A DNA stretch of 64,000 nucleotides, taken from a virus. The position numbers and the translations under genes were made by a program. The notes under the pieces were generated by a model, which saw only the letters and a list, made by a program, of their open reading frames with translations, was not told where the DNA came from and searched no databases. The stretch covers positions 48,304 through 112,303 of IMG/VR virus record IMGVR_UViG_3300035180_001220; one strand, 5' to 3'. Of this stretch, positions 22,234 through 31,063 are shown in pieces. How positions within the stretch are numbered: position 1 is the first letter of the stretch; each line of letters begins with the position of its first letter.

Positions 22234-22533
22234 ATGTCTACAGCAAAAACAATCGCAGCAGTACAACGCTCTAAGCCATTCCAGAACTTGCTTGCCGCGG
22301 GTCTTCAATTGGTATCTACAGATCGTCAACTTCAAAATGGCACCCTTGCTTTCTCTGGAAAGATTAAGGCTGGTCGTAAGACAATCAAGCCTACCTACGC
22401 GGTCACTGCCAGTGGCGCGGTATTGAGCAATGAATTCGTTGCCCGTCGCGTAACAGCTGAAAAGGCGACTGATCAATACCGTCGGGGGCTCTCTGCAGTT
22501 TCTGAACTTCTTGACAAGAGATTGGCGGCTTAA
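22234..22533 (+). CDS. Hypothetical basic protein
   Basis: 99 residues, about 15% Lys+Arg, with helices at both ends and a KAGRKTIKPTYAV central strand. AAAGGA ribosome-binding site. Possibly nucleic-acid binding from composition alone. It is the last gene before a strong terminator. Confidence 0.5.
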   Translation: MSTAKTIAAVQRSKPFQNLLAAGLQLVSTDRQLQNGTLAFSGKIKAGRKTIKPTYAVTASGAVLSNEFVARRVTAEKATDQYRRGLSAVSELLDKRLAA

Positions 22534-22553
22534 GCCAGGCAGCTCTCAGGATA

Positions 22554-22577
22554 TGAAGGGAGCCTTGGCTCCCTTCA
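22554..22577 (+). terminator. Rho-independent terminator
   Basis: 11-bp perfect stem (TGAAGGGAGCC / GGCTCCCTTCA) with a 2-base apex (probably a 4-base loop in RNA), followed by TTGTCTT, 21 bases after the stop of the gene at 22234. Closes the 13-22.5 kb transcription run. Confidence 0.7.
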
Positions 22578-22611
22578 TTGTCTTAGATTACTTATCCCGC
22601 GATGAAGTGTG

Positions 22612-22719
22612 ATGGGTGAAAGAGGAATGGGCAATGATGGTCAGAATGCAGCCAACTTGGAGTTGATCTCTCTGTTAAAACTGGGCCTACTGCCGATAAG
22701 TATTAATTCGATTACTTAG
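22612..22719 (+). CDS. Possible 35-residue peptide
   Basis: ATG 22612 opens 35 codons (MGERGMGNDGQNAANLELIS...) between two terminators. No good ribosome-binding site; recorded because it fills the only gap here. The rest of 22534-22807 holds the terminators and a late box. Confidence 0.15.
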   Translation: MGERGMGNDGQNAANLELISLLKLGLLPISINSIT

Positions 22720-22727
22720 ATAGTCTA

Positions 22728-22757
22728 AATAGGAGTCTTTGGGCTCCTATTTTGTTT
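22728..22757 (+). terminator. Rho-independent terminator
   Basis: 8-bp stem AATAGGAG / CTCCTATT with an 8-base loop, followed by TTGTTTG. Second terminator-like hairpin within 180 bases, insulating the split-intein ATPase operon from upstream transcription. Confidence 0.6.
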
Positions 22758-22764
22758 GAGCAGT

Positions 22765-22772
22765 GATAAATA
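22765..22772 (+). promoter_or_regulatory. Late promoter box GATAAATA
   Basis: Lies 36 bases before the ATG of the ATPase N-half and directly after a terminator hairpin, so the split gene would depend on it or another local promoter. Confidence 0.4.
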
Positions 22773-22807
22773 AAAGGTAATAATTACCATATAACCTGCT
22801 CGAGAAT

Positions 22808-23782
22808 ATGAAACTACTTGTACTTGCAAACGCGCACCATGAACTTATCAAGGAAGCTACGGTTGGAACTGCCAGCGTAGCCCTAGCCATGGAGAAGATG
22901 ATCAAGTTTATCCAACGAAAGATGGATGAAAAGCTCATCAGGATTCCTGGAATTGAGCATTTTCACAATTCCACTGACAGCGGGTATGGTATTCGCTATG
23001 TATTTTCAGGTACAACGCGCTGTCTTCGCTTCAACTGGGGTTCTGAAGCTTCAGCTGGTAAGACTAGTGAGATTCACTCCATCGACATCTTCAATGGTAA
23101 GTCTGCTGATCCAACGTTCAGCATTCACTGCAAGGGTATTTCCTTCGCGCAATCACTGCCAGCTCTTGTAGCAATTCTTCATTCTCCAACAATTGGTCAT
23201 GTTCGTGCCTTCCCAGTTAGCCCTGTTGAAGCTTTGTCTGAGTCAGTTATCATGGAAGTTGCGCGGGATGCATTCTCGCCTGAAGCTGCTCTCAATGACT
23301 TCCTCGGAAAACTCGCAGCAGGCAAGACATTCACCCGTTCTGAATTCATTGGTTCCTACCACATTATCAATGCCGGTATCTTTGACACAGTCTTCAGGGA
23401 CTTCAATGACAGGTTTCAAATTGATGCCAGGAGAGTTTCGCTAAAGCCAGGTTCGAAGATCGACTCTCTTAAGGACTCTATTCTTTCAAAGGCAGGAGTC
23501 ATCACTGTAACCCAAGGTGGTACAGATGAATCCTTCATGAAGACCAAGCAGGAAGAGCAAGTTGAAAAGGATACCGCTGAACGCATTCCATTTGGTGACA
23601 CCCTTGAACACTTGGAAGGTCTCGTAACAGGTACCATAAAGGGGGCATTCAACGCTCTCTTTGTTGCTGGTAAGGGTGGATCGTTTTCAGGTTCAACTCT
23701 TGTAAATGTTATGGTTAATAATTCATCAATAAATTTAAATGATAATCATCAAACCGAAAACAAGATTGCCAATCATAATTAA
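22808..23782 (+). CDS. AAA+ ATPase, N-terminal half, fused to split-intein N fragment
   Basis: 324 codons: 291 residues of host protein followed by 33 residues of intein. The host part ends ...NALFVAGKGG, the first half of a Walker A motif; Ser at codon 292 starts an intein block A (SFSGSTLVNVMVN). The rest of the Walker A (TGKT) opens the C-terminal half at 25207. After trans-splicing the protein would be about 504 residues with an intact GKGGTGKT P-loop. An intact ATPase with the same P-loop region lies at 30098. The N-terminal 290 residues are of unknown fold. Confidence 0.85.
   Translation: MKLLVLANAHHELIKEATVGTASVALAMEKMIKFIQRKMDEKLIRIPGIEHFHNSTDSGYGIRYVFSGTTRCLRFNWGSEASAGKTSEIHSIDIFNGKSADPTFSIHCKGISFAQSLPALVAILHSPTIGHVRAFPVSPVEALSESVIMEVARDAFSPEAALNDFLGKLAAGKTFTRSEFIGSYHIINAGIFDTVFRDFNDRFQIDARRVSLKPGSKIDSLKDSILSKAGVITVTQGGTDESFMKTKQEEQVEKDTAERIPFGDTLEHLEGLVTGTIKGAFNALFVAGKGGSFSGSTLVNVMVNNSSINLNDNHQTENKIANHN
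23681..23779 (+). other. Split intein N fragment (33 residues)
   Basis: Begins with Ser1 and the block A pattern S-x-S-G-x-T-L-V; ends at the stop 23780-23782 after an Asn/His-rich, AT-rich tail. With the 137-residue C fragment it makes a complete mini-intein of about 170 residues. Most natural split inteins are cut near residue 100; a cut this close to the N terminus matches the rarer atypical class (for example AceL-TerL). Confidence 0.85.
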
Positions 23783-24794
23783 AACGATAGAAGAAATTAT
23801 TCCTCATCTTAAACGAGTATCAAAAAGCTGGCGATCTTTAACACCACAAGTTAAAGATAGCCTTTTATCACTTCTTTCAAGAAATCCAATTTATTCAGGA
23901 ATGAATCTATTTCATCTAGACTTACGTAAAGATGTTTTACACATGCGATCCGGGACATTTTCTAGTGATCAGTATAAAAATATATTTGGATGGAGTGAAG
24001 AAGAAATAAGTTCATTAATAAAAAGTAAGGATAATATAATAAAAAATTCTTCTGGAGGTTTAACTCCGTGTATGAAAGAATTTTGGATTAAACATCACGG
24101 ATTATCTGAAAAAGATGCTATTAAAAAAGTATCAGAAATCCAAACTAAACTAAGTAAAAGAAAAAAGAAAACTGTTTTTAACAATCCAATTTCTTTACAA
24201 TATTATTTGCAAAGGGGTATTAATAAAGATGAAGCAATTAGGGCACAAAGTGAAGTTCAAAAGAAAAGAAGAAATAACTGTATCGAGTATTGGTTAAACA
24301 AGGGATATTCAAAGGAATATGCGAAAAAGGAAATATCTAATTTACAAAAACTTAGAAGTAAATTAAGTATAGAATATTGGTTACACAGAGGATACACATT
24401 AGAACAAGCACAAAAAGAAGCCTATCTTGCACAAAAAGCTCAGATGCCATCAAAAGTTTCAAAAATATCCAAAAAATTTTTTACCGAATTATTATTAGAG
24501 CTTAAAAAATATGGTTATTTAGAAAATGAATTCAAGTATGGTGATAACGAAGAATGCATTTATATTAGTTCAAAAAGACGCATATATTTAGATTTTTATC
24601 ATCAATTAACTAAGAAGGTAATAGAATTTGATGGAAAATATTGGCATTCTGAAAAAACCATAGAAGATGAAAAAAGAGATAAAATGCTAAAAGAATTAGG
24701 TTATTCGGTTTTAAGAATTCCAGAAACATATGATAATGAACTTTGGAATAAATATCTTATTCAGGCTGTTGAATTCATCGTAAAGGAAAATTAA
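23739..24794 (+). CDS. Vsr-like (EDxHD) free-standing homing endonuclease
   Basis: 351 residues, strongly AT-rich. Residues about 110-230 hold four degenerate repeats of about 33 residues, each with a (E/Q)(F/Y)(W/Y)L--G------A motif (IEYWLNKGYSKEYAKKE, IEYWLHRGYTLEQAQKE), probably DNA-binding. The C-terminal 100 residues carry a Vsr-like nuclease core: YLDFYH, VIEFDGKYWH, then a KRDKMLKELGYSVLRIPE tail, matching the EDxHD homing endonucleases found between split-intein halves. It overlaps the intein N fragment by 44 bases in another frame and stops one base before the C fragment, so it occupies the break exactly. Confidence 0.8.
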   Translation: MIIIKPKTRLPIIIKTIEEIIPHLKRVSKSWRSLTPQVKDSLLSLLSRNPIYSGMNLFHLDLRKDVLHMRSGTFSSDQYKNIFGWSEEEISSLIKSKDNIIKNSSGGLTPCMKEFWIKHHGLSEKDAIKKVSEIQTKLSKRKKKTVFNNPISLQYYLQRGINKDEAIRAQSEVQKKRRNNCIEYWLNKGYSKEYAKKEISNLQKLRSKLSIEYWLHRGYTLEQAQKEAYLAQKAQMPSKVSKISKKFFTELLLELKKYGYLENEFKYGDNEECIYISSKRRIYLDFYHQLTKKVIEFDGKYWHSEKTIEDEKRDKMLKELGYSVLRIPETYDNELWNKYLIQAVEFIVKEN

Positions 24795-24795
24795 T

Positions 24796-25206
24796 ATGCA
24801 GTATATACAAGTCAATATGTATTGGCTAGAGCAGTATGTTAAAGACACATATAAGATTGAAGAACTAGAAATTGGGCACTTGTACAAAATTTCTGATATA
24901 ATGATTGAAACCCCAAATGGGTTTAAACCTACTATTGGATTTATAAAGAAAAAGGGAAATCAAGCTTTTGTTGAATTTGAGTCAGGTATCAAGCATGAGT
25001 GTCTTTCCAATCATATGTATATTGCCGAAAATGGAAAAGCACATTTTGTTTATAATATGGTGCCAGGAGATAAAATTCGTACAAGAAATGGTATTGATAT
25101 TGTTAAAGCTGTAACAATTACCGAAAATGAGATGTTTGCTTATGACTTATCTGTTGATTCTAATGATCAAATTTTTGTAACAGCAGATGGTATTCAAAGC
25201 CATAAT
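24796..25206 (+). other. Split intein C fragment (137 residues)
   Basis: Contains a block-B-like His (LSNHMYIAENG, residue 73), GDKIRTRNG, block F (FAYDLSVDSNDQIFVTADG) and block G ending QSHN, followed by Thr+1 of the ATPase. The terminal His-Asn and a Thr nucleophile are the residues needed for C-terminal cleavage and ester formation. Confidence 0.88.
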
Positions 25207-25848
25207 ACAGGTAAGACACAGACTGTTGAAAAGGTTCTTCATAATCATGGTTTGTCAGATGGTAACGGTTACTTCAAGAATACTGGTACGGCTTCCGCAC
25301 TCGGTATCTACTCGCTTCTCTACAAGCACCGCGACGGCATTCTTTTGTTTGATGACTCCGATGGAGCTTTGGCCGATCAAGATGGTCGTAACCTTATCAA
25401 AGCAGCTACTGATACCAAGAAGCACCGCAAGATTGCTTGGAACAAAAAGTCTGCAGGTATGTATGATCCAGAACATGAAGATGCAGAAGAGTATGCAGAA
25501 GATGCGGACAAGTTGCCACGGCATTTTGAATTCACTGGGCGCATCATCTTTATTTCTAACTTGCCATTAAGCAAGCTTGATCCAGATGGTGCGCTTCGAA
25601 CTCGAGCCTTCGTCATCAACATCGATCCAACGGATGAAGAGCTTTACGAGCACATGGAAAAGATTCTTCACGAAATTAAACTCGAAGATGGCCTTTCACT
25701 CTCAAATGAAGAACGTGAGAATGTTCTAACAGTTGTCAAGAAGTCAAAGCGCAAGGGAGATGTATCTCTTCGTAAGCTTGTTCGAGCTCTTAACCTTGCA
25801 GCATCTGGTGCGCCCAACTGGGAGCGCCTGGTTTCCCTATATGCATGA
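24796..25848 (+). CDS. Split-intein C fragment fused to AAA+ ATPase C-terminal half
   Basis: 350 residues: intein 1-137, host protein 138-350. The host part starts TGKTQTVEKVL (end of Walker A), then FDDSDGAL (Walker B, like IFDDCDSI in the paralogue), FEFTGRIIFISNLPL (sensor-1-like) and NWERLVSLYA at the end, collinear with the intact ATPase at 30098. AAAGGA lies before the ATG inside the endonuclease gene's 3' end, so this half can be translated separately. Spliced product: a P-loop ATPase of unknown role, perhaps replication or packaging related. Confidence 0.85.
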   Translation: MQYIQVNMYWLEQYVKDTYKIEELEIGHLYKISDIMIETPNGFKPTIGFIKKKGNQAFVEFESGIKHECLSNHMYIAENGKAHFVYNMVPGDKIRTRNGIDIVKAVTITENEMFAYDLSVDSNDQIFVTADGIQSHNTGKTQTVEKVLHNHGLSDGNGYFKNTGTASALGIYSLLYKHRDGILLFDDSDGALADQDGRNLIKAATDTKKHRKIAWNKKSAGMYDPEHEDAEEYAEDADKLPRHFEFTGRIIFISNLPLSKLDPDGALRTRAFVINIDPTDEELYEHMEKILHEIKLEDGLSLSNEERENVLTVVKKSKRKGDVSLRKLVRALNLAASGAPNWERLVSLYA

Positions 25849-25866
25849 CCTGTTTTTGCCGATTTC

Positions 25867-25898
25867 TATAATACTCTTATCTAAACAATGAGAGTATT
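25867..25898 (+). promoter_or_regulatory. Hairpin masking the ribosome-binding site, overlapping a -10 box
   Basis: Arms 25870-25880 and 25888-25898 pair over 11 bp (one G-U) with a 7-base loop. The right arm contains GAGAG, the only Shine-Dalgarno candidate for the ATG at 25904. A TATAAT at 25867-25872 overlaps the left arm, so a transcript begun there (about 25879) would lack most of that arm and leave the site free. T4 controls I-TevI and seg genes in a similar way. No good -35 is seen. Confidence 0.5.
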
Positions 25899-25903
25899 TT
25901 ATT

Positions 25904-26734
25904 ATGGAAAAGAAATATGTAAGAGCATCAAACAGAAAACATCACATAGTTTATAAAACGACATGTATAGAAACAAATGCATTCTATATAGGCATGCACA
26001 GCACTGATAATCTAAATGATGGTTATCTGGGAAGTGGGGTTAGGCTTAGAAAATCGATTAGAAAATATGGTGAAGCTGCACATAAGACTGAAATCTTATT
26101 CGAATTAGAAAATAGACAGGCTGCATCAGATAAAGAAAGAGAACTTATTACTGCTGAACTAAGAAAGGATCCAAAGTGTATGAACTGCGGACCTGGTGGT
26201 GAAGGCTATTATGATAGACCAGCTACTAAAGAAGAAACGTCAGCTAAACTTTCTAAAGCTTCTAAGCAATATGTTCGCACTAAAGAGTGGTATGAAAAAG
26301 TAGTAGCTACTCGAAAAGCAAACAACAGTTATACTCATACCCCAGAAGCAAGAGAAAAGATTAGAGCTTCTCTAACCGGTAAAACTTTAACTGAAGAGCA
26401 CAAGAAGAAAATATCAGAAGGTGGTACTGGGCAGAAGAGAACAGAAGAAACATGTTTGAATATCTCTAAGTCTCTAAAGGGAAAGAAGTTTAAATCTGGG
26501 GTAGATAGAAAACCTGTATCAGAAGAAGCTAAAGAGAATATTAGACAAGATCGCATTGGTAAAAAGCACTCTGAAGAAGCCAAATCTAATATGCGAAAAC
26601 CTCATAAAAAGCCAAAAACCCGCCAATGTACTGTAGATGGTATAAATATCTATCAATCAGTAAGTCAAATGGTTAAAGCTTTAGGTTCTGGTCAAAATAG
26701 TCGGAGATCACCAAATTTTAGGTGCATAATATGA
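25904..26734 (+). CDS. GIY-YIG homing endonuclease with NUMOD3 repeats
   Basis: 276 residues. GIY-YIG core at the N terminus: HHIVYKTTC, AFYIGMHS, GYLGSG, RKYGEAAHKTEIL with the usual Arg and Glu. From about residue 105 there are NUMOD3-type DNA-binding repeats (SAKLSKASK; TPEAREKIRASLTGKTLTEE; SEEAKENIRQDRIGKKHSEE) and a C-terminal helix-turn-helix-like module (CTVDGINIYQSVSQMVKALG). SegA-like, probably intron-less and mobile. It sits directly behind the split ATPase gene, a typical neighbour target. Confidence 0.88.
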   Translation: MEKKYVRASNRKHHIVYKTTCIETNAFYIGMHSTDNLNDGYLGSGVRLRKSIRKYGEAAHKTEILFELENRQAASDKERELITAELRKDPKCMNCGPGGEGYYDRPATKEETSAKLSKASKQYVRTKEWYEKVVATRKANNSYTHTPEAREKIRASLTGKTLTEEHKKKISEGGTGQKRTEETCLNISKSLKGKKFKSGVDRKPVSEEAKENIRQDRIGKKHSEEAKSNMRKPHKKPKTRQCTVDGINIYQSVSQMVKALGSGQNSRRSPNFRCII

Positions 26735-27036
26735 AAACTTCATTCAAACAGTTCGTTCAAGAAGGTCCTATACTTGATAAGGTGAAGAAATTTTTCAAGA
26801 AGAAAGAAGTTATTCCTACTGACCCACGAATGAAGCCTGCTTTCATTCAAGCAGGTGGTGAAAAGAAGTATGACATCATGGGATGGCAAATCGGATGGTT
26901 TTGTTGTCAAGCAGATCCATCAGGAGATCCAAAAGAAATTTTCAACAAGATGTATTATGGTGGCGGAAGCCCTATCTCATTTGATGAGAAGTCTTTTTAC
27001 GCTGGATTTAAAACTTGCAGAGAGATGGCATCCTAA
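26731..27036 (+). CDS. Small capsid-tag-like protein
   Basis: 101 residues from ATG 26731 (MKTSFKQFVQEGPILDKVKKFFKKKE). The first ten residues are close to the T4 capsid-targeting peptide MKTYQEFIAE. Rest: basic helix, then GWQIGWFCCQADP and a C-terminal FYAGFKTCREMAS. No catalytic family recognised. The stop is one base before the next gene, which has the same tag. Confidence 0.55.
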   Translation: MKTSFKQFVQEGPILDKVKKFFKKKEVIPTDPRMKPAFIQAGGEKKYDIMGWQIGWFCCQADPSGDPKEIFNKMYYGGGSPISFDEKSFYAGFKTCREMAS

Positions 27037-28155: not shown

Positions 28156-28488
28156 ATGACCAAAAAGCTAAAGTCCTCCAGAAAGCGTAGAACCGATAGA
28201 TCTCACATCATCTATCTTCTTACTAACTGCGTTACCTCGGAAACCTACATTGGTCTGGCTGTTTGTGTAGATCGTTCGGGCAAGGAAACTTTAGCTGCTC
28301 GTTGGTCACGTCACGTAGGTCGTGCCTTCAATCAAGACAAAGGCTGGAAGCTTTGCGAATCCATTCGTAAGTATGGTCCAGAAGTTTTCCACAAGGAAAT
28401 CATTTGCTTTGTTCGTGGTAAGGCTGCAGCCCACACTCTCGAAACCCAACTGAAGAAAGAAGGCCGCCCGGCCTTGAATACTGTATGA
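28156..28488 (+). CDS. Small GIY-YIG nuclease-like protein
   Basis: 110 residues. HIIYLLTNCVTSETYIGLAV is a GIY-YIG first motif; RWSRHVGRA and KYGPEVFHKEII follow in family order, then a short LETQLKKEGRPALNT end. No extra DNA-binding region, unlike the enzyme at 25904. The start is set by the only available ATG and lies at the expected transcription start of its promoter, suggesting a leaderless mRNA or a lost 5' end. Confidence 0.7.
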   Translation: MTKKLKSSRKRRTDRSHIIYLLTNCVTSETYIGLAVCVDRSGKETLAARWSRHVGRAFNQDKGWKLCESIRKYGPEVFHKEIICFVRGKAAAHTLETQLKKEGRPALNTV

Positions 28489-28781: not shown

Positions 28782-29414
28782 ATGTTTCAAAATCAAGAAA
28801 CCTTTCTGCCTGGTATGCGGCGACATACCTTCAAGCCCAAGACAGTTTTCCACCGGGTTGCTACCTTCACCTTCGAAGAAGGTATGTATGTTATCAACCA
28901 CATCAAACAGAAGAATCTCCATGGTGTTGAAGTTGAGGGTATCACTGATCCGCAATCTACTCGCATCCGTATGATCGCAAATGGTCAAACTGCTTGCGTT
29001 AAATGCGGCCTGAAAGGTAATCACTTCTACATTGAACGCCACAAGAAAGATTTGGCTAGCAAGTACAGTCTCAATCTGTATGCTCTCACAGAAGATGGTT
29101 TTGAAGTCATGATGACGTGGGATCACATCATCCCTAAGTCTCTAGGTGGTTCAAACCGGCTGTGGAATGCTCAGTGCATGTGTCAAAAGTGCAATGCTGC
29201 TAAAGGCAATTATCTGAGTTTGGCTGAGCTGGTTGAGATTGGCAGTCATAAGAATGCTCACCTCATGTATAGCTTGCCGCAAATACAACTTAACAAGGAC
29301 AACGGAATTACACGTACTTTGAAAGATGTTCGTGAGATGAACCAGAAATGGGAAAATACTCAAGCTGTGCCAGTGTTTAAGAAAGCTGACCTAACGGAAA
29401 CTGCAAATGTCTAA
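28782..29414 (+). CDS. HNH endonuclease
   Basis: 210 residues. Zinc/HNH core: CVKCGLKG, then WDHIIPKSLGG, NAQCMCQKCNAAKGN, i.e. two CxxC knuckles around the H-N-H ββα-metal fold. N- and C-terminal flanks may be DNA-binding. Free-standing homing or host-DNA-degrading nuclease. Confidence 0.85.
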   Translation: MFQNQETFLPGMRRHTFKPKTVFHRVATFTFEEGMYVINHIKQKNLHGVEVEGITDPQSTRIRMIANGQTACVKCGLKGNHFYIERHKKDLASKYSLNLYALTEDGFEVMMTWDHIIPKSLGGSNRLWNAQCMCQKCNAAKGNYLSLAELVEIGSHKNAHLMYSLPQIQLNKDNGITRTLKDVREMNQKWENTQAVPVFKKADLTETANV

Positions 29415-30097: not shown

Positions 30098-31063
30098 ATG
30101 TCCCATGTTGCTACTCTCTCCTTTCAGACCTCCACAAACAAGTGGGTGGCCTCCTTCAACGGAAAGATTCTGGCTTCCTCTCCTAACAAGGACTATGTGA
30201 TAGGTAATATCCGCTCCGGTCGTTGCACTAAAGCCGTAGCTGCGGGTGTAACTGAAGTTCGTGAGGTTGGCGAAGCTACTGTGAATGTTACAACTGGAAA
30301 GACCGAGAAGGTTGATCGTTTTTCGATCAATGAACGTTTCGACTTTATGACCGACTTTGTTAACATGGTTGCTGACCACACCTGTGCTTCAGTTATCGTA
30401 ACTGGTGAAGGTGGTCTTGGAAAAACTTTCACAGTCAACAAAGCCCTTCAAAATGCCGGTCTCCAAAATACTGCTGATCTGGTCGGGTTCGGATCTGACT
30501 CCCTTTTGAATCCTTCTGTGTCTGCGAAGATTTACTCAGTAGTCAAAGGCTACTCGACTGCTAAGGGTCTCTACCGCACTCTCTACGAAAACCGTAATCG
30601 TATTGTGATCTTCGATGACTGTGATTCTATTCTCCGTGACCCTGTTGCCCTGAACCTTTTGAAAGGTGCTCTCGATTCCTATGATCGTCGCATCATTTCT
30701 TGGAATGCCGAGTCTTTCGGTGACGATGATCTTCCTCGCTCGTTTGAATTCACTGGTGGTGTGATCTTCATCTCGAATTTCCCACTCTACAAAATCGATC
30801 AAGCTATCCGGTCTCGTGCAATATGTGTTGATTTGTCCATGACGACTGCTCAGAAGATTGAACGCATGGGAGCTATCATCAAGGGGGATGACTTCTTGCC
30901 TGAATACGAATTGAACACCAAGAAAATGGCTCTTGCTTTCCTCGACAAGATGAAAGATGAAGCCACGGATTTGAATCTGCGGACTTTGATTGCTGTTACG
31001 AAGGTTGCAGGTCGTGGAGATAACTGGGAACGGCGGGCAGAATACCTGTTGAATGCTGCATAA
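30098..31063 (+). CDS. AAA+ ATPase (intact paralogue of the split-intein ATPase)
   Basis: 321 residues. Walker A VTGEGGLGKTFTVNKAL (about 108-124), Walker B RIVIFDDCDSI, FEFTGGVIFISNFPLYKID (sensor-1-like) and a C-terminal NWERRAEYLL. Collinear with the C half of the split ATPase, but the N-terminal region is much shorter and the P-loop is uninterrupted. Role unknown; two such ATPases in one phage suggests separate functions. It is the first gene after P2. Confidence 0.8.
   Translation: MSHVATLSFQTSTNKWVASFNGKILASSPNKDYVIGNIRSGRCTKAVAAGVTEVREVGEATVNVTTGKTEKVDRFSINERFDFMTDFVNMVADHTCASVIVTGEGGLGKTFTVNKALQNAGLQNTADLVGFGSDSLLNPSVSAKIYSVVKGYSTAKGLYRTLYENRNRIVIFDDCDSILRDPVALNLLKGALDSYDRRIISWNAESFGDDDLPRSFEFTGGVIFISNFPLYKIDQAIRSRAICVDLSMTTAQKIERMGAIIKGDDFLPEYELNTKKMALAFLDKMKDEATDLNLRTLIAVTKVAGRGDNWERRAEYLLNAA

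What the first reader, a model, noticed from the sequence alone, without database searches (positions are those of the whole stretch)
22808..25848. AAA+ ATPase split inside its P-loop by a trans-splicing intein, with a homing endonuclease gene in the break
The N-half ends VAGKGG plus an intein N fragment (Ser1, block A SFSGSTLVNV); the C-half starts with an intein C fragment ending SHN and continues TGKTQT. Joined, the host sequence gives a perfect GKGGTGKT Walker A. The break holds one endonuclease gene and nothing else. This is the 'fractured gene' layout known from environmental phage sequences (split inteins with Vsr-like endonucleases), in a gene family I do not recall being reported for it.
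Basis: partly seen in the sequence, partly recalled or inferred. Interest (0 to 1): 0.93.

Follow-up and report, generated by a model that had tools for sequence, protein, structure and literature searches.

The report
Phage ATPase split by trans-splicing intein
A large T4-like virus carries an ATPase gene cut in two exactly inside its ATP-binding loop, with intein halves that should stitch the protein back together and a DNA-cutting homing gene in the gap; the same trick recurs in the ATP-binding loops of at least eight different families of phage enzyme.

Summary
A NrdC.10-like AAA+ ATPase gene is broken between GKGG and TGKT. The N-half ends with a 33-residue intein N fragment (Ser1); the C-half begins with a 137-residue C fragment ending SHN, +1 Thr. 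One endonuclease gene (DUF559 match, repeat array) fills the break. Of 80 IMG/VR relatives returned, 76 are uninterrupted here; the closest is 504 residues long, the length predicted after splicing. The C-fragment family's best PDB sequence match is VidaL, a working atypical split intein whose C-extein is also SGK. Other phages fracture the same gene: L008/L088 at this site (13-residue N fragments), L043 and L114 three residues on. A scan with a module of related endonucleases found 70 loci; 64 hold at least one half of a gene broken in its P-loop, in eight NTPase families. So this is a fractured gene with a VidaL-type intein: a new member in a new host gene, with an unusual Ser1/Thr+1 pair, within a broad P-loop-directed class that I did not find described, though the founding paper was not readable. 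Splicing and homing are inferred, not shown.

The parts
22808..23680 (+). N-extein: N-terminal 291 residues of a NrdC.10-like AAA+ ATPase, ending VAGKGG (first half of Walker A)
   Evidence: 78% aa identity to intact L005; no tblastn match in named phages
23681..23779 (+). Int-N: 33-residue intein N fragment, Ser1, block A SFSGSTLVNV; stop codon 23780-23782
   Evidence: rank 2 of 35,749 10-mers by Int-N matrix
23739..24794 (+). Homing endonuclease gene (351 aa): repeats of the type EYWL..GYS.EEAK..VS..Q plus a DUF559/MTES_1575 nuclease domain; overlaps the end of the N-half ORF by 44 bp
   Evidence: Pfam DUF559 6.5e-7; similar to L008 and L043 endonucleases
24796..25206 (+). Int-C: 137-residue intein C fragment; His73 (block B), Asp117 (block F), His136-Asn137 (block G)
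   Evidence: TIGR01443; these four positions are the invariant ones in 41 Int-C (the final HN was partly a search criterion); AF2 pLDDT 95, top PDB match by E-value VidaL 6vgv
25207..25845 (+). C-extein: 213 residues beginning TGKT, rest of the AAA+ ATPase; +1 residue Thr; stop 25846-25848
   Evidence: phrog_1250 2e-27; 1219 phage records match, some annotated nrdC.10; 82.6% aa identity to L005
24783..24787 (+). AAGGA, 8 nt before the C-half ATG: likely ribosome binding site
   Evidence: none found before the N-half or endonuclease starts

Best explanation
The ATPase gene is a 'fractured gene'. A naturally split intein of the VidaL type, split near its N-terminus, breaks the host gene inside the P-loop, and a homing endonuclease gene lies in the break. 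The two polypeptides associate through Int-N and Int-C. Ser1 starts the acyl shift, Thr+1 (the Thr of TGKT) takes the N-extein, Asn137 cyclises, and a 504-residue ATPase with an intact GKGGTGKT loop is released (inferred). The enzyme presumably cannot bind ATP before splicing. The endonuclease presumably cuts the uninterrupted P-loop DNA of a co-infecting phage, so that repair copies the whole 1,526-bp cassette into it; the insertion destroys the target (inferred). The endonuclease can be absent while the split intein stays, as seen in relatives, because the host gene still needs to splice.
For: Empty alleles: 76 of 80 relatives returned are contiguous, exact empty site in L005-L007. His and Asp of blocks B and F invariant in 41 Int-C. 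Profile best hit VidaL, 8.2e-23; AF2 model of the window Int-C has VidaL as top PDB match by E-value. VidaL's crystallised chain ends in SGK after the splice site, a P-loop-like extein; a 2026 paper read in passages describes it as a fast natural split intein with a 16-aa Int-N (PMC13014065). Same gene, same site, other lineage: L008 with an endonuclease, L088 without (144-bp gap). Between these two the Int-C has dN 0.121, dS 0.864 (ratio 0.14), about as constrained as the C-extein (0.147/1.172). G+C break at both borders. Endonuclease module scan: 64 of 70 loci have at least one half of a P-loop-fractured gene (corrected by 113 and 126-129). Int-C scan, junction placed by alignment: S or T at +1 in 80 of 80 returned.
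Against: No spliced product, transcript or cleavage has been shown. The window allele has only identical copies, so selection on its own intein cannot be measured. Its Int-C is a long branch with at most 32% identity to the others, and by TM-score other inteins fit its model better than VidaL (RadA intein 0.78 against 0.67). The one natural cysteine-less atypical split intein known to the 2026 paper, PolB16, splices slowly and incompletely. The window endonuclease lacks the module used in the scan, so the scan would not have found it; its tie to that family is the repeat region. It has no visible ribosome binding site. The junction search in the 70 loci required C or S at Int-N position 1 and N followed by S, T or C, so those residues are not independent evidence there.
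Confidence: 0.87

Rival explanations
1. Genes-in-pieces: the two halves associate non-covalently and work as a two-subunit enzyme, and the intein fragments are dead remnants (as recalled for the Aeh1 phage NrdA split by mobE).
For: Such a case exists (Friedrich 2007, seen only as cited in passages of PMC10448857). Splicing was not tested here.
Against: The break is inside the Walker A loop, and each half carries a matched intein fragment. Block B His and block F Asp are invariant in 41 Int-C. Int-C is under purifying selection where testable, in a pair of which one allele has no endonuclease. In 80 of 80 Int-C loci whose junction was placed by alignment, +1 is S or T.
Confidence: 0.06
2. A formerly functional intein that has been wrecked by endonuclease insertion; the phage uses the intact paralogue at 30098-31063 instead.
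For: A paralogue with an unbroken GEGGLGKT loop lies 4 kb downstream.
Against: Both ORFs are open and in frame to their ends. The C-extein is well conserved (82.6% aa). The paralogue also stands beside intact copies in L006 and L007, so it is not simply a replacement. The same arrangement recurs in other lineages.
Confidence: 0.04
3. RNA-level rescue (group I or II intron) or assembly error explains the break.
For: Phage endonucleases often sit in introns (general knowledge).
Against: Rfam scan of 22500-26900 shows no intron family; the only match up to E 1 was one sub-threshold miRNA model. Identical sequence in two other records over 13,050 bp. Both borders fall exactly at intein-type junctions.
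Confidence: 0.02

Closest known systems
VidaL split intein (PDB 6vgv, 6vgw)
   Same: Best sequence-profile match (8.2e-23) and top fold match by E-value of the Int-C; very short Int-N; C-extein SGK in the solved chain, consistent with a P-loop site.
   Different: VidaL is cysteine-dependent with a 16-aa Int-N (PMC13014065 passages). The window has Ser1, a 33-aa Int-N and +1 Thr. Host gene and endonuclease context of VidaL were not checked here.
Fractured genes (Dassa et al. 2009, not held; recalled and seen only as cited)
   Same: Conserved phage enzyme gene, split intein, free-standing endonuclease gene between the halves.
   Different: Host gene is a NrdC.10-like AAA+. The split site is atypical (short Int-N). 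The endonuclease has a repeat array. Whether P-loop cases were in that paper could not be read.
AceL-TerL and GOS-TerL (natural), Cat-TerL (engineered consensus) atypical split inteins
   Same: Short Int-N (25, 37, 30 aa; PMC11766414 passages), phage terminase genes. GOS-TerL has Ser1.
   Different: GOS-TerL is Ser1/Cys+1. Their site is, as I recall, the one with C-extein starting CEF; a fracture of that kind, away from the P-loop, appears in Vibrio phage Va1 (CNF) and in this virus (CEF).
PolB16 OarG split intein
   Same: Cysteine-less with a short Int-N.
   Different: 15-aa Int-N in DNA polymerase B, called the only known natural cysteine-less atypically split intein (PMC13014065 passage). 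The window Int-C keeps one Cys, at position 69, not expected to be catalytic.
Contiguous P-loop inteins such as mycobacteriophage TerL1-a
   Same: Insertion in the Walker A loop; TerL1-a lies between the invariant Lys and Thr, a 'classic' P-loop site (PMC5050341 passage).
   Different: The window intein is split and separated by a free-standing gene; 'split intein' does not occur in that paper's text.

Membership tests
Fractured gene (split intein plus endonuclease gene in the break) | Conserved enzyme gene in two ORFs whose join restores the intact family | tested here: met
   76 of 80 relatives returned are contiguous (86 were found); L005 504 aa
Fractured gene (split intein plus endonuclease gene in the break) | Complementary intein halves at the break | tested here: met
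Fractured gene (split intein plus endonuclease gene in the break) | Free-standing endonuclease gene between the halves | tested here: met
   DUF559
Fractured gene (split intein plus endonuclease gene in the break) | Trans-splicing activity | not testable with these tools
   no experiment
VidaL-type atypical split intein | Short Int-N, long Int-C (split near the N-terminus) | tested here: met
   33 aa and 137 aa
VidaL-type atypical split intein | Homology of Int-C to VidaL | tested here: met
   profile 8.2e-23 with 41 members; Foldseek rank 1 by E-value; window Int-C itself is divergent
VidaL-type atypical split intein | Cys1 nucleophile | tested here: not met
   Ser1 in the window; C in 53 of 54 Int-N read from the endonuclease-scan loci, S in one, L134 (script sought C or S)
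Class 1 intein | Nucleophile at position 1, penultimate His and terminal Asn, C/S/T at +1 | tested here: met
   Ser1, His136-Asn137, Thr+1
NrdC.10-like AAA+ ATPase | Sequence family match of the host | tested here: met
   phrog_1250 2e-27, C-extein only; annotated nrdC.10 in Edwardsiella phages PEi20 and PEi26; N-extein matched nothing there
NrdC.10-like AAA+ ATPase | AAA+ fold | tested here: met
   Foldseek of the intact L005 model: NorQ, Vps4, RFC and others; model pLDDT 76, pTM 0.47
Group I/II intron | Intron RNA at the break | tested here: not met

The most novel reading that the evidence does not exclude
One phage-borne lineage of split-intein/endonuclease cassettes uses the codons of the ATP-binding loop, the DNA stretch shared by otherwise dissimilar NTPases, as a common landing pad. 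It has hopped between terminases, SbcC/gp46, DnaB/gp41, UvsW, UvsX/RecA, PhoH, Clp and NrdC.10-like genes, so that many large phages make key motors only after joining two proteins.
Probability: 0.45. Interest if true: 0.8.

Novelty: new variant of a known kind. Interest (0 to 1): 0.64.

Why it matters
It adds a host gene and a rare catalytic pair (Ser1/Thr+1) to the few natural atypical split inteins, and exposes candidates with 13- and 14-residue N fragments, shorter than the 15-residue record quoted in 2026 (PMC13014065); short split inteins are wanted for protein labelling. More broadly, a family of homing elements appears to favour P-loops across at least eight NTPase families. That makes an old question testable: do inteins gather in P-loops because their endonucleases recognise the shared loop DNA, or because such sites tolerate or hide them? 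Empty, full, endonuclease-less and differently placed alleles of one gene are at hand, and at least one cultivated phage (Pseudomonas phage Ettore) carries a UvsX example.

Tried and rejected
Tried without result: nearest-DNA search of phages (no match); N-extein tblastn in phages (no match); direct scan with the window endonuclease alone (5 loci, of which two are this same virus and three match the nuclease domain only); Pfam on the two halves (nothing); endonuclease module in the genome-contig collection (84,980 species, one peptide pattern: 47 pattern matches, none confirmed).

Considered and rejected: group I/II intron; assembly error (identical records); stop-codon reassignment (all three window ORFs are open in the standard code).

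Results against the broad claim: in 6 of 70 endonuclease loci I found no fractured half (L107, L113, L116, L125, L168, L169). In L107 and L125 the endonuclease sits before an unbroken terminase; in L168/L169 before an unbroken gp46-like gene. Among the named phages looked at, Va1 (terminase, matched by the nuclease domain only) is fractured away from the P-loop, Lak-B7 shows a RecA-like N-half with a long Int-N away from the P-loop (C-half not found), and Cr30 is the free-standing case L107. P-loop insertion of contiguous inteins is already classic. P-loop NTPases are distantly related to one another, so 'different families' means no BLAST link at 1e-4 between C-exteins, not separate origins. 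Host families cluster on the Int-C tree more than chance (13 changes, shuffled mean 22.9, minimum 7), so jumps between genes look real but not frequent. Many tree branches are long, and the second tree's bootstrap had not settled.

Search bias and dropped rows: the half-finding scripts sought fixed motifs. C-halves not beginning with [STC]GK or TNVGKS were put by default in the class 'after GK'; for four loci with no N-half in the locus (L117, L124, L128, L132) that rests on likeness to related C-halves. Five false N-half calls of the script (L113, L116, L146, L168, L169) were removed and five N-halves (L123, L131, L135, L162, L170) were read by eye before the count. L109 (TGA read as Trp), L129 and L176 were reassigned, and L152 after one search showed its N-half. 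In one search, three N-half hits (L224, L225, L227) are judged spurious. The opposite-strand check covered six loci only (L109, L113, L116, L120, L129, L176).
Full report
What is in the window. The N-half ORF (22808-23782) and the C-half ORF (24796-25848) are open in the standard code and run the same way. The N-half reads ...NALFVAGKGG and then SFSGSTLVNVMVNNSSINLNDNHQTENKIANHN, stop. The C-half begins with 137 residues ending TADGIQSHN and goes on TGKTQTVEK.... Between them is one gene, 23739-24794, whose start overlaps the N-half ORF by 44 bp. The insert is 28.4% G+C; the exteins are 46.3% and 45.4%.

The host gene. The C-extein matches phrog_1250 (2e-27) and 1219 phage records by tblastn, annotated nrdC.10 in Edwardsiella phages PEi20 and PEi26; the N-extein matches none there. 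A scan of viral contigs found 86 relatives and returned the best 80. Of these 80, 76 read through the site as V[AS]G[KR]GG[VIT]GKT or a close variant. Two (L003, L004) are this virus, identical over 13,050 bp. L008 and L043 are fractured. The intact L005 allele is 504 residues. Its AF2 model (pLDDT 76) matches AAA+ proteins such as NorQ, Vps4 and clamp loaders. A paralogue with an unbroken loop lies at 30098-31063.

The intein. TIGR01443 marks the C-terminus of the Int-C (8.9e-5). In an alignment of 41 Int-C the invariant columns are His73, Asp117, His136 and Asn137, the block B, F and G residues by recalled intein nomenclature; the final HN was partly a search criterion, His73 and Asp117 were not. 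The profile of these 41 finds VidaL first in the PDB (8.2e-23), then gp41-1, CatC and others. The AF2 model of the window Int-C (pLDDT 95) has VidaL first by E-value, with the RadA intein higher by TM-score (0.78 against 0.67). The VidaL chain ends ...SH-A-SGK, that is, its extein begins like a P-loop. The window intein has Ser1 and Thr+1 and one Cys, at position 69 of Int-C. A 2026 paper (PMC13014065, passages) calls PolB16 the only known natural cysteine-less atypically split intein and gives 15 aa as its record-short Int-N.

Other fractures of the same gene. L008: VAGRGG|CLSADTAIVATQD (Int-N 13 aa), endonuclease, Int-C, TGKTHTTE. L088, L089, L091 and L097 hold the same Int-C family and site; in L088 and L091, where the whole break was read, there is a 13-aa Int-N, no endonuclease and a 144-bp gap. 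L043: AGGLGK|CASSAV..., endonuclease, Int-C, THTVEE, three residues further on. L114, found later, is also of this ATPase family by C-extein clustering, with a 14-aa Int-N in the register of L043. Between L008 and L088 the Int-C has dN 0.121 and dS 0.864 over 137 codons; C-extein 0.147 and 1.172; N-extein 0.364 and 1.196. So the intein is kept under selection in a pair of which one allele has no endonuclease. The endonucleases of the window and of L008 share their N-terminal and repeat region (E 1e-16) but seemingly not their nuclease domain: DUF559 in the window, a weak GIY-YIG-like match in L008 (T5orf172, E 0.083, below the curated cut-off).

A wider class. A 75-residue module built from five related endonucleases, not present in the window one, found 70 loci in viral contigs. 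Halves were sought by script and by eye; one search gave 50 with both halves, 8 with the C-half only, 4 with the N-half only, 8 with none. Later reading moved L109 (TGA read as Trp), L129 (endonuclease on the opposite strand) and L152 (N-half seen) to 'both', and L176 to 'C-half only'. Final: 53 both, 8 C-half only, 3 N-half only, 6 none, of 70; so 64 of 70 hold at least one half. The loci are not all distinct: with the window, L088 and L100, 46 Int-C remain after collapsing those over 95% identical. Host families by C-extein clustering and Pfam of ten representatives: terminase, SbcC/gp46-like, DnaB/gp41, Clp, PhoH, UvsW-like, RecA/UvsX, and the NrdC.10-like cluster that holds the window. Of 30 endonucleases scanned, 16 match MTES_1575, 12 DUF559, 8 ROS_MUCR (a transcription-regulator family), 2 T5orf172, 2 MUG113 and 1 Vsr at E 0.01.

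An Int-C scan that used no endonuclease sequence found 515 related stretches and returned the best 80, which include near-copies and contigs already seen; 80 of 80 have S or T at +1, 68 have a credible GK|C N-half upstream (71 flagged, 3 spurious), and six with an N-half lack any same-strand endonuclease ORF of 130 aa (L205, L215, L223, L234, L248, L253; gaps of 4 to 129 bp). On a tree of 46 Int-C the host-gene label needs 13 changes (minimum 7, shuffled mean 22.9), with starred clades that mix Clp with NrdC.10-like, RecA with PhoH, DnaB and SbcC, and terminase with SbcC. The splice register (before or after GK) also clusters (7 changes, shuffled 11.6). Named phages with P-loop fractures: Vibrio phage vB_VmeM-32 gp41 helicase, Pseudomonas phage Ettore UvsX (ten further Pseudomonas records share the endonuclease hit, but their UvsX was not read), uncultured phage LR756500 PhoH.

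How it most likely works. Shown: the anatomy, the empty sites, homology to a working split intein, purifying selection in relatives, recurrence. Inferred: trans-splicing, loss of ATP binding before splicing, homing by cutting the empty P-loop DNA, and spread between NTPase families through the shared loop codons.

Known or new. The fractured-gene layout is known (Dassa 2009; not held, seen only as cited). P-loop insertion of contiguous inteins is known (PMC5050341, passages). The MIJ3 genome paper reports a split PolB intein, and 'UvsX' does not occur in its text (PMC6892783, passages). My searches (of an open-licence library, read as listings, some of them cut short) listed no paper whose title or abstract start speaks of P-loop-fractured genes with atypical split inteins; this does not prove absence. 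Passages were also read in PMC11766414, PMC12707363 and PMC10448857. I rate the locus a new member, and the class around it a new variant, of a known kind.

Noticed in passing
G001 (239,441-bp record IMGVR_UViG_3300037010_001702, same virus): L179, L180, L181, L182/L183: The same virus carries four more genes that look split by inteins: terminase (C-extein CEFISSDAL), NrdA with a GIY-YIG-like gene in the break, UvsW-like helicase at its DE box with a gene in the break, and an RNA-ligase-like gene at KRDG (gene names by eye). None lies in the 64-kb window.
   Followed up: partly
L102:4076-7082 (Pseudomonas phage Ettore): UvsX-like recombinase fractured at AGESG|SGKS with a 17-aa Int-N, an endonuclease and a VidaL-like Int-C (by eye), in a cultivated phage.
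   Followed up: partly
L109:3627-7741: Terminase in a phage that seems to read TGA as Trp, broken by a P-loop split intein, an apparent contiguous intein in the middle and a further split intein at CKFLGSS, with a short endonuclease remnant.
   Followed up: partly
L129:2517-5602 and L176:2425-4791: UvsW-like genes fractured at SGKS with the endonuclease gene on the opposite strand inside (L129) or beside (L176) the break.
   Followed up: partly
L101:2942-6359 (Vibrio phage Va1): Terminase N-half with short Int-N, then one ORF that fuses an endonuclease to the Int-C and C-extein.
   Followed up: no
L008:8483-9412: A KFDG|CIHKDTLVVTQ junction suggests a second intein, in a nucleotidyltransferase-like gene of that phage.
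   Followed up: no
L120:2684-5639: Terminase N-half with Int-N and endonuclease, but no C-half seen in the 8.6-kb locus; the next gene is clamp-loader-like by eye.
   Followed up: partly
window 25904-26734, 28156-28488, 28782-29414: Three further endonuclease-like ORFs (two GIY-YIG-like, one HNH-like, by eye) downstream of the fractured gene.
   Followed up: no
window 30098-31063: Paralogue of the ATPase with an intact GEGGLGKT loop; also present in L006 and L007 beside intact copies.
   Followed up: partly
L168:2710-3621, L169:1409-2320, L107, L125: The same endonuclease family free-standing next to unbroken gp46-like or terminase genes, perhaps the state before or after fracture.
   Followed up: no
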